Source of the DNA: Eubacterium sp. An11
GTDB lineage: Bacteria; Bacillota; Clostridia; Lachnospirales; Lachnospiraceae
Direction of reading: 5' to 3'
DNA: 64,000 nt
Assembly: GCF_002161065.1 (NCBI RefSeq)
Contig: NZ_NFLV01000018.1
Span: 1-64,000, forward strand
Part shown: in pieces, positions 43,841 through 51,596 of the stretch
Layout of the letters: every line of letters begins with the position of its first letter
Position numbering within the stretch: the stretch's first letter is position 1
Made by a program: the position numbers and the translations under genes
Notes under the pieces: generated by a model
What the model saw: the letters and a program-made list of their open reading frames with translations, nothing else
What the model was told of the DNA's origin: nothing
Database searches by the model: none

Positions 43841-45748
43841 TTGAATACAATCATTGACACTTTATCACAGGCTTTCCGCCTTGTTCAAAATGCCGGACAG
43901 CCCCTCTCTTTTGAAAACAACTGCATACAGAATATGTTCCTTCTTCCGTCCCGCATCGAGGCTTTCCACGATGACGGGCTTTTTCTCAAATTTATCGAAA
44001 ATCTTCTCCGGGAACGGAACAACTTTTCCTTTCCGGAAAACGCCCGGGAATACGACCGGTACTTTGAAGACTGCATCCGCCTGAAAGAACAGATGCGTTC
44101 CGCCGGTGATCCAGCCAAAACAACAGCAGATCCATTCACCGGCAATACTCTTCCACAATCAAAAGGTCCATCCGCCGGCAATACTCTTCCACAATCAAAA
44201 GGTCCATCCGCCGGCGATACTCTTCCACAATCGGAAGATCCATCTGCCGATAACAGTTTTCCGGAAGATATATGGCTGCAGTGCACCATCAGTCTTTTTG
44301 AAAATCTAAAAACACCCTTTTATTCTGTGTATGCCCAAACTATGCTTGGACTGGAACCATGCTTTAAAGACAGGAGTTTATTCCTTCGGACACTGCAGGA
44401 CTTCTACTCAGTCATCATCAAGTCCACACCGGAAAACCTGCAGCACATCGCCCGCATTGCGAAACGGGCTTCTTCCTATATAATATACCTGAAACAGAAC
44501 GAAAAACTTCTGGCGGATATTCTGCGCTTTCAGCTTGCCTGTTTCACCACAGAAAAGAATATCTGGCTGGTAAAATTATTTAACGAAATGTATACCAGCA
44601 AGATTTCTTCTCTGGATGACATCCGCATCGAGGGATTTCTTGCTGATTTCCAGAAAAAAGAGCTGGACTTTTTATGCCGGCTGACCACCAGTCAGGACGG
44701 ATCCCAGGGCGGGGCGGACCTTGTTCCGGAATCTCTGCTCCGGGAAGCCTCTCCTCTGTCCGAGATGGATTTCCCGGAATATCTCGCTCTTCGAGCACTC
44801 GATTTCTCCGGACTGCGGGAACACGCACCCGAAGAAGTCTTTCCGGGATACCGGCGCCATAGCGGCAGTTCCCATCTGTCCTCCGACAGCATTTTAAATA
44901 AATATGCTTATAACATGACAGCCGCCTCCTATATTACAAACCCTGCCATCGGCAGAGAAGCGGAACTGAATGATCTGGAACTGATTTTGATTTCCCCGAA
45001 AAAGTCTCCGATTCTTCTCGGAGAAGCGGGCGTCGGCAAAACCGCCGTGGCCGAGGGACTTGCCTGGCTTTTGCAGAGAGGACAGGTACCGAACCTCCTG
45101 AAAAACAGGGAAATCTACAAACTGACCACCACCTCTCTTTTAAGCGGCACCAAATATGTGGGCGAGATGGAAGAGCGCATCCGCCAGCTCATGGAAGAGC
45201 TGGACAGACATCCGGAAATCATTTTGTTCATCGATGAAATCCATACCATCGTCGGGGCAGGTTCCACCGAAAGCTCCAATAATGATATCTCCAATATGCT
45301 GAAACCGTATATTGACCGGGGCGATATCAAAATCATCGGCTCCACCACCAGCGATGAGTACCAAAAATACATTCTAAGCGACAAGGCTCTGGCCCGTCGT
45401 TTCTACCCTGTTACCGTGGAAGAACCAGATGCGGATACGACACTCCGCATTCTTCTTGGAACCATCCCTGCCGTGGAATACGAGACGAAGGTGAGGAATG
45501 CATTTTCTCAGGAAGTCACCATTCAGATTCTCCGGACTCTCATCCGACTCTCATCGGAAGACTATCAACCGCAGGATAAGAGGACCCGAAGACCGGAGCT
45601 TCCGCTCACTCTCCTTGAAATGGCTTTTTCCTATGCAGCCCTGCAGTCAAGGGATACCGTATCCAGAGATGATTTCATCAGCGCCGTCCGACACTCGAAC
45701 CTCCTGAAAGCGGAAGTAAAAAACAGTGCAGAACAATATTTTTTATGA
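43841..45748 (+). CDS. ClpA-like single AAA+ ATPase with unrecognised N-terminal region
   Basis: A 635-residue protein. Residues about 370-620 form one AAA+ module of the ClpA/ClpB D1 type: NPAIGREAEL, Walker A GEAGVGKTAVAEG (about 393), Walker B IILFIDEIHTIVGAG (about 460), sensor IIGSTTSDEYQKYI and arginine fingers near LARRFYPV. The second AAA module, the Clp N-domain and any ClpP-binding loop are absent. The first 370 residues match nothing I know and include a 12-residue Pro/Ser tandem repeat. The start is a TTG at 43841, 11 nt after AGGAG. The next in-frame ATG is 28 codons later. A SEC-C protein gene follows on the same strand. Confidence 0.82.
   Translation: MNTIIDTLSQAFRLVQNAGQPLSFENNCIQNMFLLPSRIEAFHDDGLFLKFIENLLRERNNFSFPENAREYDRYFEDCIRLKEQMRSAGDPAKTTADPFTGNTLPQSKGPSAGNTLPQSKGPSAGDTLPQSEDPSADNSFPEDIWLQCTISLFENLKTPFYSVYAQTMLGLEPCFKDRSLFLRTLQDFYSVIIKSTPENLQHIARIAKRASSYIIYLKQNEKLLADILRFQLACFTTEKNIWLVKLFNEMYTSKISSLDDIRIEGFLADFQKKELDFLCRLTTSQDGSQGGADLVPESLLREASPLSEMDFPEYLALRALDFSGLREHAPEEVFPGYRRHSGSSHLSSDSILNKYAYNMTAASYITNPAIGREAELNDLELILISPKKSPILLGEAGVGKTAVAEGLAWLLQRGQVPNLLKNREIYKLTTTSLLSGTKYVGEMEERIRQLMEELDRHPEIILFIDEIHTIVGAGSTESSNNDISNMLKPYIDRGDIKIIGSTTSDEYQKYILSDKALARRFYPVTVEEPDADTTLRILLGTIPAVEYETKVRNAFSQEVTIQILRTLIRLSSEDYQPQDKRTRRPELPLTLLEMAFSYAALQSRDTVSRDDFISAVRHSNLLKAEVKNSAEQYFL
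44132..44263 (+). repeat. 36-bp in-frame tandem repeat in the AAA gene
   Basis: Three full units (44132-44167, 44168-44203 and 44204-44239) and one partial unit encode GNTLPQSKGPSA variants. Units 1 and 2 are nearly identical, pointing to recent duplication in a linker. Confidence 0.85.
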
Positions 45749-45869
45749 AATGCAAATTATTTTCACTATAAAATAACAATACTACCAAAAAAAGAGAGCC
45801 AAAAGCTCATTAATTATAAGGAAAATCACGAAAAAAATAGTATAATGTATCAGGACAACAAAAAAGCAT

Positions 45870-45893
45870 CCATGTAATTTCTTATGAAATAAA
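45870..45893. repeat. Dispersed motif, copy 4
   Basis: CCATGTAATTTCTTATGAAATAAA lies in the gap between the AAA and SEC-C genes. It resembles the TTTCCTATGAAAT half of the copies near 5600, 15731 and 24112. Confidence 0.35.
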
Positions 45894-45927
45894 TACTCTT
45901 TATTATCACTGACAGGAAATATACTAT

Positions 45928-47091
45928 ATGAACACATACAGCAATTACTTATTAACAAGAACAAAAAAAGATTTAATTCAGCTGGCAAAACTTCACGGCA
46001 TGTCCGGATATTCATCCATGAAAAAAGACGAGCTTGCCCGGAATCTTCTGGACTATCTGTATACCCCTTCCGTCATCCATAACTTTTTTGTCTATTTAGG
46101 GGATGACGAACTGAATCTCATACATTTCCCGGAATCCGGACATCCGGCACTATACCGGAGGATGTATGAGGGCGGCTATTGTCTGAAAAATACAGATGGC
46201 TCATACCAGATTCCGCAGCAGCTGATGGAAACTTCCGCAGAACTTTTGACAGGAGCCTTTGAAAAAGAGCGCCAAAGAAAAAGTTTTCTTCTGGACTGTC
46301 TCAACGCTTCAGGGCATTTGTACGGCTGTTTTCCGGCGTCCATTCTTATGAAAATGTACAACGCATACGCGCCAGCACCTTTGAAACGGGAAGATATTCT
46401 GCAGGAAATACGAATCATACCTCCGTATTTCCAAAGTTTTATTCTGGAAAATGATCTGATCATTCAGGAAGCCCTGTACGCCAATGCTTTATATAAGAAG
46501 ATACAGCAATGCCAGGGAACGCTTCCTTTTTATATGCCGGACAAAACACAAATCCGGTATCTGTCCCGTTTCGGATATTTCCCGGAAGATCAGTATACAG
46601 GGCAACTGTCCGAAATTCTTGCCGGCACAGGAGAAATCACCCGGGAAAAAGCCCGGGAACTCAGCGGTGAGATCCAGACTCTGTTCCGTCAGGGCGGCAC
46701 CATGGAGGACGCCGTCACATTTCTTAAAAAATACGCTCGATCCCGGGAACATTCAAAGACAGGCAATCAGAAGACAAAAACTCCAGAGTCAGAAAACCAG
46801 TCGTCCGGATCTCCAAAGGCAGTCAGTCATAAATCCGGCACTCCGGAGCCAAAAGCTTCTCCAGGATATGCCCTGGCAGACATCCTTGACGCGGGCATCG
46901 CCGATGCTTCCGGGCGGAAACTGCTCTCTGCCCTGAACAATGTCTTCTCGCACGCTGCCCTTCTTCTCAACAGAGGATATACAGCGGCGGAAGCCATGAG
47001 ACTTAAACAGAAAAAAGTAAAAATCTATCCCAACAGTCCCTGCCCCTGCGGCAGTGGAAAAAAATATAAAAATTGCTGCGGACGACGTTAA
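45928..47091 (+). CDS. SEC-C motif protein with Rho-N/SAP-like start
   Basis: A 387-residue protein. The first 45 residues (TKKDLIQLAKLHGMSGYSSM) resemble the Rho N-terminal/SAP helical fold used for nucleic-acid contact. A helical body follows. A Ser/Lys/Pro-rich low-complexity stretch lies around 272-310. The C-terminus is a perfect SEC-C zinc motif, PCPCGSGKKYKNCCGRR, as at the end of SecA. It lies 180 bp after the AAA ATPase gene on the same strand. A TATAAT at about 45842 may give it a separate promoter. Function is unknown. Confidence 0.82.
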   Translation: MNTYSNYLLTRTKKDLIQLAKLHGMSGYSSMKKDELARNLLDYLYTPSVIHNFFVYLGDDELNLIHFPESGHPALYRRMYEGGYCLKNTDGSYQIPQQLMETSAELLTGAFEKERQRKSFLLDCLNASGHLYGCFPASILMKMYNAYAPAPLKREDILQEIRIIPPYFQSFILENDLIIQEALYANALYKKIQQCQGTLPFYMPDKTQIRYLSRFGYFPEDQYTGQLSEILAGTGEITREKARELSGEIQTLFRQGGTMEDAVTFLKKYARSREHSKTGNQKTKTPESENQSSGSPKAVSHKSGTPEPKASPGYALADILDAGIADASGRKLLSALNNVFSHAALLLNRGYTAAEAMRLKQKKVKIYPNSPCPCGSGKKYKNCCGRR

Positions 47092-47111
47092 GTCGCCCGC
47101 AGCTTTCTTTT

Positions 47112-49765: not shown

Positions 49766-50728
49766 ATGGACCAATTACTATCCGTCATCATCCCTTCTTT
49801 TAATGAGGAGGGCATGATACCAAAAACTTCAAAGACTATATCGGGACTTCTGGAAGAGGCCGAAATCTCTTACGAGCTGATTTTTGTCAACGACGGTTCC
49901 ACAGATACTACCTGGGAAAAGATCCGCCAGGAAGCTTCCGGCAATTCCTGTGTAAAAGGCGTCAATTTTTCCAGAAATTTTGGAAAGGAATCCGCCATAT
50001 ACGCCGGCCTGTTTTACGCCTCCGGAGACTGCTGCGTGGTCATCGACTGCGATCTGCAGCATCCCCCTGAAAAGATCATAGAAATGTACCATCTCTGGGA
50101 GAAGGGATATGAGATTGTGGAGGGTGTCAAACATTCCCGGGGAGAAAAAGAGAGTCCCGCTCATTTTTTTGCCGCCCGCTGCTTTTATAAAATCATCAGC
50201 CGTCTCACGGATATCGATATGACCCGGGCGTCGGATTTCAAACTGCTGGACCGGAAAGCCGTCAACGCCCTGCTGAATATTCGGGAGAAAAATGCATTTT
50301 TCCGCGCGCTTTCTTCCTGGATCGGTTTTAAGACCACCAGCGTCGAATTTGATGTGAGAGAAAGAGAAATCGGGGAGACCAAATGGTCCACCTGGTCGCT
50401 GATCAAGTACGCCGTCTCCAACATTTCTTCTTTTTCCGCGGCGCCCATGCAGATCGTCTCCCTGCTCGGCTCCGTCATGCTGCTGATTTCTCTGATCCTG
50501 GGCGGAATCGCTCTCTATCAGAAAATCATCGGAACCGCCCTGGAAGGTTTTACCACTGTGATCATCATCAATCTGTTCACCGGCAGCATCATCATGCTGA
50601 GCCTCGGTATCATCGGTTATTATATTTCAAAGATTTATGATGAGATACAGGGAAGACCAAAATATATCGTCCGGGGCATCTGCGGTGACCTGAAAAATAC
50701 ACCTAAAGAACCAAAAGATGTTCTTTGA
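49766..50728 (+). CDS. Family 2 glycosyltransferase (GtrB/DPM1-like)
   Basis: A 320-residue membrane glycosyltransferase. The GT-A domain (1-225) has SVIIPSFNEEG, FVNDGSTDTT and the metal-binding DCDLQHPPE. Two C-terminal membrane helices (about 232-255 and 268-292) and the end motif KIYDEIQGRPKYIV are typical of GtrB/YfdH and Csb-like enzymes that transfer a sugar from UDP to undecaprenyl phosphate. Its sugar-lipid product would be used outside the membrane. The gene ends 46 bp before the next start on the same strand, suggesting an operon. Confidence 0.92.
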   Translation: MDQLLSVIIPSFNEEGMIPKTSKTISGLLEEAEISYELIFVNDGSTDTTWEKIRQEASGNSCVKGVNFSRNFGKESAIYAGLFYASGDCCVVIDCDLQHPPEKIIEMYHLWEKGYEIVEGVKHSRGEKESPAHFFAARCFYKIISRLTDIDMTRASDFKLLDRKAVNALLNIREKNAFFRALSSWIGFKTTSVEFDVREREIGETKWSTWSLIKYAVSNISSFSAAPMQIVSLLGSVMLLISLILGGIALYQKIIGTALEGFTTVIIINLFTGSIIMLSLGIIGYYISKIYDEIQGRPKYIVRGICGDLKNTPKEPKDVL

Positions 50729-50774: not shown

Positions 50775-51596
50775 ATGATTATGAAAGAAATTCAGCGAAT
50801 TGCCAATTCGTATTTCAATTATTTTAAATTAAAAGATGTGAACCTGCGGTTTATTCTGGCCGACGACATGTATGAATGTCAGAAAAAATACGGGTTCAGC
50901 GATGAAGATATCAAGACTCTGGACGAAGCCACTGCCCGCCAGAACTGGAAGCATGTGGCCGCCTGCATGAAGTATCCCCGTTCCATGGATGAACCGTTTT
51001 ATCTTATCTTCAAGCGGCCGTACATAGAGCGGGTGGAAGACTGCGAGCTTTATCGTCTGGTTTTCCACGAGCTGACCCATATGTGCGATTACAAAGATTA
51101 CGCCCGGCTGAACCACCTTTCCTCCTATGAGGAGCTGTTCAGTAATCCGGAGACCGTTCTTTTCCAGCACTGGTCAGAATATCACGCTGAGCGCAGAGGC
51201 TACGCCGCCTGGCTCAAGCACCGCTACGGCGTCCAGTTAAAATACAGCCCGGACAAGATCGGCATCATGGAGCGGGAGACCATGGATAATATCCGATATT
51301 ACGGAGAGCACTACACCAACACAGCGGAGTACGGCTCCACCCGTCAGATTTATTTTACCATGCATCTTCTGGCCCGCATGAGCATCTGGATGCAGATCCT
51401 TCCATACCAGGTCAGCGATATTTTATCCAAAGAACCTTTTAATTACCGGGGTATCATCTGGATCAAGAAGCTCATGTATCTGTTCAGCAAATATCCGGAA
51501 ATCGGACAGATGAACGACCACTTCATGGATATCGCGCATATTGTTGCCGAGAACATGTCGCTGACCAGAGAGGAACTATGGGAAGTTGTATCCTGA
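50775..51596 (+). CDS. Putative zincin metallopeptidase, hypothetical
   Basis: A 273-residue cytoplasmic protein with the zinc-binding motif HELTH (98-102) and, about 37 residues later, EYHAERRG, whose Glu could be the third ligand (gluzincin type). No signal peptide or membrane segment is present. I do not recognise a named family. The start at 50775 is suggested by GGGAG 9 nt upstream. It follows the glycosyltransferase gene closely and is ended by a terminator, so the two probably share a transcript. Confidence 0.75.
   Translation: MIMKEIQRIANSYFNYFKLKDVNLRFILADDMYECQKKYGFSDEDIKTLDEATARQNWKHVAACMKYPRSMDEPFYLIFKRPYIERVEDCELYRLVFHELTHMCDYKDYARLNHLSSYEELFSNPETVLFQHWSEYHAERRGYAAWLKHRYGVQLKYSPDKIGIMERETMDNIRYYGEHYTNTAEYGSTRQIYFTMHLLARMSIWMQILPYQVSDILSKEPFNYRGIIWIKKLMYLFSKYPEIGQMNDHFMDIAHIVAENMSLTREELWEVVS

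What the first reader, a model, noticed from the sequence alone, without database searches (positions are those of the whole stretch)
43841..47091. Orphan single-AAA ClpA-like ATPase paired with a SAP/SEC-C protein
The ATPase keeps only the D1-like AAA module of ClpA/ClpB, lacks the Clp N-domain and second module, and has about 370 unrecognised residues in front. The next gene joins a nucleic-acid-binding-like start to a SEC-C zinc motif. An unfoldase-like ATPase next to an adaptor-like zinc protein suggests an uncharacterised quality-control or defence system.
Basis: partly seen in the sequence, partly recalled or inferred. Interest (0 to 1): 0.55.

Follow-up and report, generated by a model that had tools for sequence, protein, structure and literature searches.

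The report
Genus-specific single-module Clp-type ATPase
A gut-bacterial genus carries its own stripped-down, probably active protein-remodelling motor with a new helical front domain; its steadiest gene neighbour is a zinc-peptidase-like gene rather than the zinc-motif gene first noticed, and nothing found points to a defence system.

Summary
Window 43841-45748 encodes a 635-residue AAA+ protein with one ClpA/B/C D1-type module, an unrecognised mostly helical front of ~345 residues (not 370), no Clp N-domain and no second module. It is no frameshift remnant: 17 of 23 same-genus genomes searched have an orthologue (one interrupted by a stop codon), and the GVGKT, DEIH, KYVG and RRF motifs are invariant in the 17 aligned rows. 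It is inherited vertically in one genus (probably Anaerobutyricum); the front domain was found in no other genus searched.

The SEC-C pairing is not supported: SEC-C is adjacent in 5 of 18 genomes and has relatives in five other genera without the ATPase. The steadiest neighbour is a HExxH metallopeptidase-like gene (50781-51596): downstream on the same strand in 15 of 17 fetched loci and in the window, directly adjacent in 6, with nearly the same genus-limited distribution. Against a tight pair: it usually has its own promoter-like site, one genome keeps it without the ATPase, and in another they lie 24 kb apart.

Most likely this is a stand-alone single-ring remodelling ATPase, laid out like human Skd3/CLPB but built from D1. 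Partnership with the metallopeptidase (as in Wss1-Cdc48) is possible, unproven. No evidence for defence.

The parts
43841..45748 (+). Single-module Clp D1-type AAA+ ATPase, 635 aa, TTG start
43841..44875 (+). N-terminal region (residues 1-345): 14 predicted helices, no known family, fast-evolving; found in no other genus searched
44131..44249 (+). 36-nt in-frame tandem repeat (3.3 copies) inside a low-confidence linker (residues ~97-136)
44876..45502 (+). AAA+ large subdomain (residues 346-554), aligns to ClpA/B/C D1
45020..45043 (+). Walker A GEAGVGKT (residues 394-401); GVGKT invariant in 17 aligned rows
45152..45163 (+). Pore-loop-1 motif KYVG (residues 438-441), aligned to RYRG of ClpC1; invariant in 17 rows
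45218..45244 (+). Walker B IILFIDEIH (residues 460-468); DEIH invariant in 17 rows
45395..45400 (+). Arg-finger pair RR (residues 519-520), aligned to ALERRF of ClpC1; invariant in 17 rows
45503..45745 (+). Predicted helical lid (residues 555-635); seen in the structure model, not in the ClpC profile alignment, which stops at residue 554
45928..47091 (+). SEC-C protein, 387 aa; adjacent in 5 of 18 genomes, probably not an obligate partner
47032..47085 (+). SEC-C motif (residues 369-386)
50781..51596 (+). Metallopeptidase-like protein, 271 aa from the conserved start (the ORF caller starts at 50718); most constant neighbour of the ATPase gene
51066..51080 (+). HELTH (HExxH) site, residues 96-100; H, E, T, H invariant in 13 rows
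51174..51191 (+). SEYHAE (residues 132-137), invariant in 13 rows, candidate third zinc ligand
   Evidence: the ligand role is inferred

Best explanation
A vertically inherited housekeeping-type AAA+ remodelling ATPase confined, as far as searched, to one genus. A D1 module of the ClpA/B/C family was uncoupled from its own N-domain and from D2 and fused to a new, fast-evolving helical N-domain. It probably forms a single hexameric ring, grips substrates through the KYVG pore loop and uses ATP to unfold or disassemble particular proteins picked by the helical N-domain. With no D2 it should lack the ClpP-docking loop (recalled knowledge), so it should work as a stand-alone remodeller, laid out like Skd3/CLPB, and not as a ClpP feeder. 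Shown: single module, invariant catalytic and pore motifs, vertical inheritance, genus restriction, linkage pattern. Inferred: hexamer, translocation, the N-domain's role, substrates.
For: D1 homology over residues 346-554. GVGKT, DEIH, KYVG and RRF invariant in 17 aligned rows. Confident helical N-domain and a full AAA core with helical lid in the model, pLDDT 80.8. Orphans form one clade (100/100) on a long stem, apart from the genus's own ClpC; the host keeps ClpC and ClpB. The orphan tree shares clades with the SecA tree. Amino-acid constraint on the AAA part (dN 0.085 against 0.27 in the N-domain, G000 versus G020 only). Human Skd3 shows that one Clp AAA module plus a helical repeat domain can be an active stand-alone machine (PMC7343390, passages).
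Against: No oligomer, ATPase or unfolding data. pTM of the model is only 0.49. The lid is not recognisable by sequence. A non-translocating assembly ATPase would look the same. Skd3 uses a D2-type module, not D1. One genome (G007) has an in-frame TAA in the gene and one (G014) lacks it at an otherwise readable site, so it is not strictly indispensable.
Confidence: 0.55

Rival explanations
1. Two-component AAA-metallopeptidase system: the ATPase extracts or unfolds proteins and the cytosolic HExxH metallopeptidase encoded at 50781-51596 cuts them, analogous to Cdc48 with Wss1.
For: The metallopeptidase-like gene is the most constant neighbour: 15 of 17 fetched loci plus the window, always downstream on the same strand; directly next (70-191 nt) in G003, G004, G006, G010, G012, G016; the sixteenth, G017, has it 24 kb downstream on the same strand, and the G013 contig ends. 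Both genes are in 16 of 23 genus-mates and both unseen in 5; in the single-sequence searches neither was found in the 75 genomes outside the genus. HExxH and SEYHAE invariant in 13 rows. AAA plus minigluzincin partnership has a eukaryotic precedent (PMC4559962, abstract and passages).
Against: Both genes share one conserved block, and in the genomes lacking both the block itself was mostly not recovered, so co-absence says little. G014 keeps the metallopeptidase without the ATPase. The metallopeptidase has promoter-like sites of its own: 11 of 18 upstream regions score at least 10 of 12 against 6.4% of shuffles. Very different constraint (dN 0.015 against 0.085 and 0.27). In most genomes other genes have come between them. 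Its model is poor (pLDDT 60.1) and its fold matches weak.
Confidence: 0.22
2. A non-translocating AAA switch or assembly ATPase that uses the helical N-domain to assemble or regulate one complex rather than to unfold proteins.
For: Single ring, unique N-domain and narrow distribution fit a dedicated factor; AAA-core similarity to other AAA groups is seen weakly.
Against: The KYVG pore-loop motif is invariant in 17 aligned rows, which suggests substrate threading.
Confidence: 0.15
3. One reading: ATPase plus SEC-C adaptor forming a quality-control or defence system.
For: Co-directional neighbours with 80-179 nt spacing in 5 of 18 genomes, including divergent G001.
Against: Absent beside the ATPase in 13 of 18 genomes; relatives in five other genera without the ATPase. 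No phage, plasmid or mobile context for the ATPase front domain; PADLOC matches are weak and confined to the AAA core and the SEC-C motif.
Confidence: 0.06
4. Decaying remnant of a ClpA/B/C protein.
For: One orthologue carries an in-frame stop (G007).
Against: Catalytic motifs invariant in 17 aligned rows, 17 of 23 genus-mates keep an orthologue, and the AAA part is constrained.
Confidence: 0.02

Closest known systems
ClpA/ClpB/ClpC (Clp/HSP100 class I), D1 module
   Same: Homologous AAA core with Walker A/B, pore-loop tyrosine and RR fingers
   Different: No Clp N-domain, no D2; unrelated helical N-domain; separate clade from the genus's own ClpC
Human Skd3/CLPB
   Same: Single Clp-family AAA module plus an unrelated helical N-terminal domain; stand-alone disaggregase (PMC7343390, passages)
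   Different: Skd3's module resembles NBD2 and its front is ankyrin repeats; here the module is D1-type and the front matches no Pfam family; no shared descent of the layout shown
Wss1 with Cdc48 (yeast), analogue for the possible metallopeptidase link
   Same: AAA machine and minigluzincin-like HExxH metalloprotease acting together (PMC4559962, abstract and passages)
   Different: Different AAA family; interaction there rests on known binding motifs; here only gene linkage
IetAS (AAA ATPase plus protease defence pair; the description is recalled)
   Same: AAA protein beside a protease-like gene; IetA models give weak AAA-core matches (best 3.1e-5)
   Different: Vertical genus-limited gene, not in a mobile or defence context
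Minigluzincins selecase and jannalysin, for the gene at 50781-51596
   Same: HExxH helix; weak structural alignments (Z 4.1-4.9, 70-91 residues)
   Different: Scores below the range that shows kinship; low-confidence model; extra helical C-terminal half

Membership tests
Clp/HSP100 class I (ClpA/B/C) | D1 AAA+ core with Walker A/B, pore loop, Arg fingers | tested here: met
Clp/HSP100 class I (ClpA/B/C) | Second AAA module (D2) | tested here: not met
   Protein ends after the D1 lid in 17 aligned rows; no second AAA stretch
Clp/HSP100 class I (ClpA/B/C) | Clp N-domain repeat | tested here: not met
   No Pfam match in the window member; no profile similarity to the ClpC N-domain
Clp/HSP100 class I (ClpA/B/C) | Hexameric unfoldase or disaggregase activity | not testable with these tools
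   needs biochemistry
Skd3/CLPB-type single-module remodeller | One Clp AAA module fused to a helical N-terminal domain | tested here: met
   an analogy of layout, not of descent
Skd3/CLPB-type single-module remodeller | NBD2-type module with ankyrin repeats | tested here: not met
   D1-type (5.1e-50 to D1, 2.4e-6 to D2); no ankyrin match in Pfam
IetAS or another defence system | Match to a defence model over the protein, in a defence or mobile context | tested here: not met
   only weak AAA-core matches; housekeeping neighbours; vertical inheritance
Minigluzincin/zincin (gene 50781-51596) | HExxH plus downstream Glu | tested here: met
   HELTH and SEYHAE; invariant H, E, T, H and SEYHAE in 13 rows
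Minigluzincin/zincin (gene 50781-51596) | Zincin fold | tested here: inconclusive
   pLDDT 60.1; no Foldseek match at E 0.001; VIA Z up to 4.9 to selecase
Minigluzincin/zincin (gene 50781-51596) | Curated family score (PhageMetallopep PF18894) | tested here: not met
   13 of 13 members match at E up to 1, best 5.5e-5; the window member has 18.9 bits against a cut-off of 23.7
ATPase plus SEC-C adaptor system | Conserved linkage of the two genes | tested here: not met
   5 of 18 genomes; SEC-C relatives without the ATPase

The most novel reading that the evidence does not exclude
A lineage-specific two-protein ATP-dependent protease built from parts not known to me to work together: a single-ring Clp-D1-derived unfoldase with a new helical substrate-recognition domain, handing substrates to a separate cytosolic minigluzincin-like HExxH metallopeptidase in place of ClpP, a bacterial counterpart in kind to Cdc48-Wss1.
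Probability: 0.2. Interest if true: 0.65.

Novelty: new variant of a known kind. Interest (0 to 1): 0.42.

Why it matters
It is a natural case of a D1-type Clp module working without D2, the usual N-domain or (by inference) ClpP, in human-gut-type butyrate producers. It allows a test of whether a D1-only ring can remodel proteins, a point usually studied with truncated ClpA/B (recalled). If the metallopeptidase proves to be its partner, it would be a new kind of bacterial ATP-dependent protease.

Tried and rejected
Frameshifted two-module Clp: rejected, 17 aligned orthologues end alike. Recent duplicate of the genus's own ClpC: rejected, separate clades with 100/100 and 100/99 support (midpoint root, long stem, 14 chosen viral rows included). 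Phage or plasmid origin: no match for the N-domain or the metallopeptidase in the phage and plasmid records; viral-contig scan of the metallopeptidase: 41 pattern matches, none confirmed. The three uncut short ones group with two-module relatives, so I found no second family of this kind there.

Foldseek with the ATPase model: the AAA part fills the list (50 of 883 matches at E 0.001 seen, all Clp proteins; BFVD search). The PDB list for the metallopeptidase has unrelated helical proteins above selecase (top row Z 5.6).

Co-loss test: inconclusive. G008, G015, G019 and G021 showed no close relatives of the flanking genes tested, and the G011 contig ends 119 bp beyond the DAHP-synthase gene. 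Species trees rest on part of the genomes: 19 rows each. For SecA, G023 was dropped because the longest frame was not SecA, and G010, G014, G019, G021 were not fetched; for ClpC, G010, G013, G014, G017, G018, G023 were not fetched. The rates come from one genome pair, with synonymous changes near saturation.

Absence outside the genus rests on samples: 99 relatives, 397 family genomes and 392 order genomes, partly overlapping, with a heuristic first look. Not in print: searches listed nothing on this protein or on a bacterial D1-only Clp of this kind; I saw listings only, apart from passages of two papers, and the library is a subset of the literature.

Full report
What is there. The window carries the two ORFs as described. 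The ATPase (43841-45748) has one AAA+ module. Its large subdomain, residues 346-554, aligns to D1 of ClpC at 5.1e-50 and only weakly to D2 at 2.4e-6, and to solved ClpC1 D1 at 7.3e-53. NCBIfam ranks ClpA first, far below the score needed to be called ClpA. The structure model (pLDDT 80.8, pTM 0.49) shows a mostly helical N-terminal region with 14 helices, a disordered linker at residues 90-137, the AAA core, and a helical lid that sequence alone does not reveal. The N-terminal part of the window protein matches no Pfam family; among 13 members only two stray weak hits appear.

It is a real, maintained gene. Of 23 same-genus genomes searched, 17 have an orthologue, and none was seen in the 75 other genomes, which show only ClpB/ClpC-type D1 matches. 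One of the 17 (G007) is interrupted by a TAA. In the 17-row alignment (window plus 16, G007 left out) GVGKT, KYVG, DEIH and RRF do not vary. A profile of the N-domain found 2 of 397 family genomes, both of the same genus, and 1 of 392 order genomes, the window's own. The genus is probably Anaerobutyricum: two matching records are titled so and their contig lengths equal those of G022 and G013.

Origin. In a tree of D1 modules the 17 orphans form one clade (100/100) on a long stem, apart from the 18 ClpC rows of the genus. The orphan tree repeats SecA groupings such as G003 with G012 and G016, G005 with G017 and G018, G002 with G009, and G000 with G013, G020 and G022, which is vertical inheritance. 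The host has full-length ClpC and ClpB besides. For G000 against G020, dN is 0.27 in the N-domain and 0.085 in the AAA part, with dS near saturation: the motor is kept while the front changes fast, as expected for a recognition domain.

The SEC-C neighbour. It is adjacent in 4 of 17 fetched loci and in the window. Relatives lie in G026, G038, G039, G054 and G056 of other genera; tblastn of the ATPase found nothing in their loci, and those genomes have only Clp-type D1 matches. In four of the five genomes the spacer shares an element ending in TAGTATAATGTA, which may be an own promoter, though no site there scores above chance.

A better-linked neighbour. The gene at 50781-51596 encodes a 271-residue protein with HELTH and SEYHAE, conserved in 13 of 13 rows apart from the third letter of HELTH. 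It is the most constant neighbour: 15 of 17 fetched loci and the window, always downstream and on the same strand, directly adjacent in six. In G017 it lies 24 kb downstream on the same strand, and in G013 the contig ends. By single-sequence search it occurs in 18 of 99 genomes and 1 of 72 genera; a profile also finds remote relatives in 3 of 397 family genomes, two of them in mobile-element-like surroundings, without the ATPase nearby. Adjacency in two separate clades (G003/G010/G012/G016 and G004/G006) makes it most simply ancestral.

Evidence against a fixed pair: 11 of 18 regions upstream of this gene hold a promoter-like site of at least 10 of 12, against 6.4% of shuffles (the window's own site, 9 of 12, is not above chance); G014 keeps this gene without the ATPase; the gene evolves far more slowly (dN 0.015). 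Its family assignment is weak: PhageMetallopep below the cut-off, anthrax-lethal-factor-type domain in 5 of 13 members; model pLDDT 60.1; selecase and jannalysin at Z 4.1-4.9 under unrelated helical rows.

Mechanism. I favour a stand-alone, single-ring D1-type remodeller. The KYVG loop argues for threading. Skd3 shows that a single Clp module plus a helical front suffices for disaggregation and that its pore-loop tyrosine matters (PMC7343390, passages). Lack of D2 implies lack of the ClpP-docking loop (recalled). The Wss1-Cdc48 case (PMC4559962, abstract and passages) is the model for the bolder reading. Defence is unlikely on context, inheritance and PADLOC.

Noticed in passing
44131-44249: In-frame 36-nt tandem repeat (3.3 copies, 91% matches) in the ATPase linker; absent from the other 16 aligned orthologues.
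   Followed up: partly
L037 (G007): ATPase orthologue interrupted by an in-frame TAA, while the metallopeptidase gene downstream is open; true mutation or assembly error unknown.
   Followed up: no
L067 (G014): Metallopeptidase gene lies 186 nt from the response-regulator gene with no ATPase or DAHP-synthase gene between: a natural ATPase-less site.
   Followed up: partly
L068 (G016:C235): Second, different copy of the metallopeptidase on a 3-kb contig in a genome that also has one at the usual place; perhaps contamination.
   Followed up: no
L064 and L065 (G350, G414): Remote relatives of the metallopeptidase beside relaxase-like or conjugation-like genes (gene roles judged by eye).
   Followed up: no
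L046:7778-9661 (G017): Frame begins with an extra, repeat-like N-terminal stretch of about 39 residues.
   Followed up: no
45749-45927: Spacer between ATPase and SEC-C genes holds AATACTACC followed by TAGTATAATGTA, shared by G000, G020, G002 and G009; meaning unknown.
   Followed up: partly
47075-47103: Strong terminator-like stem (12 pairs, 9 G-C, minus-strand orientation) between the convergent SEC-C and L,D-transpeptidase genes.
   Followed up: no
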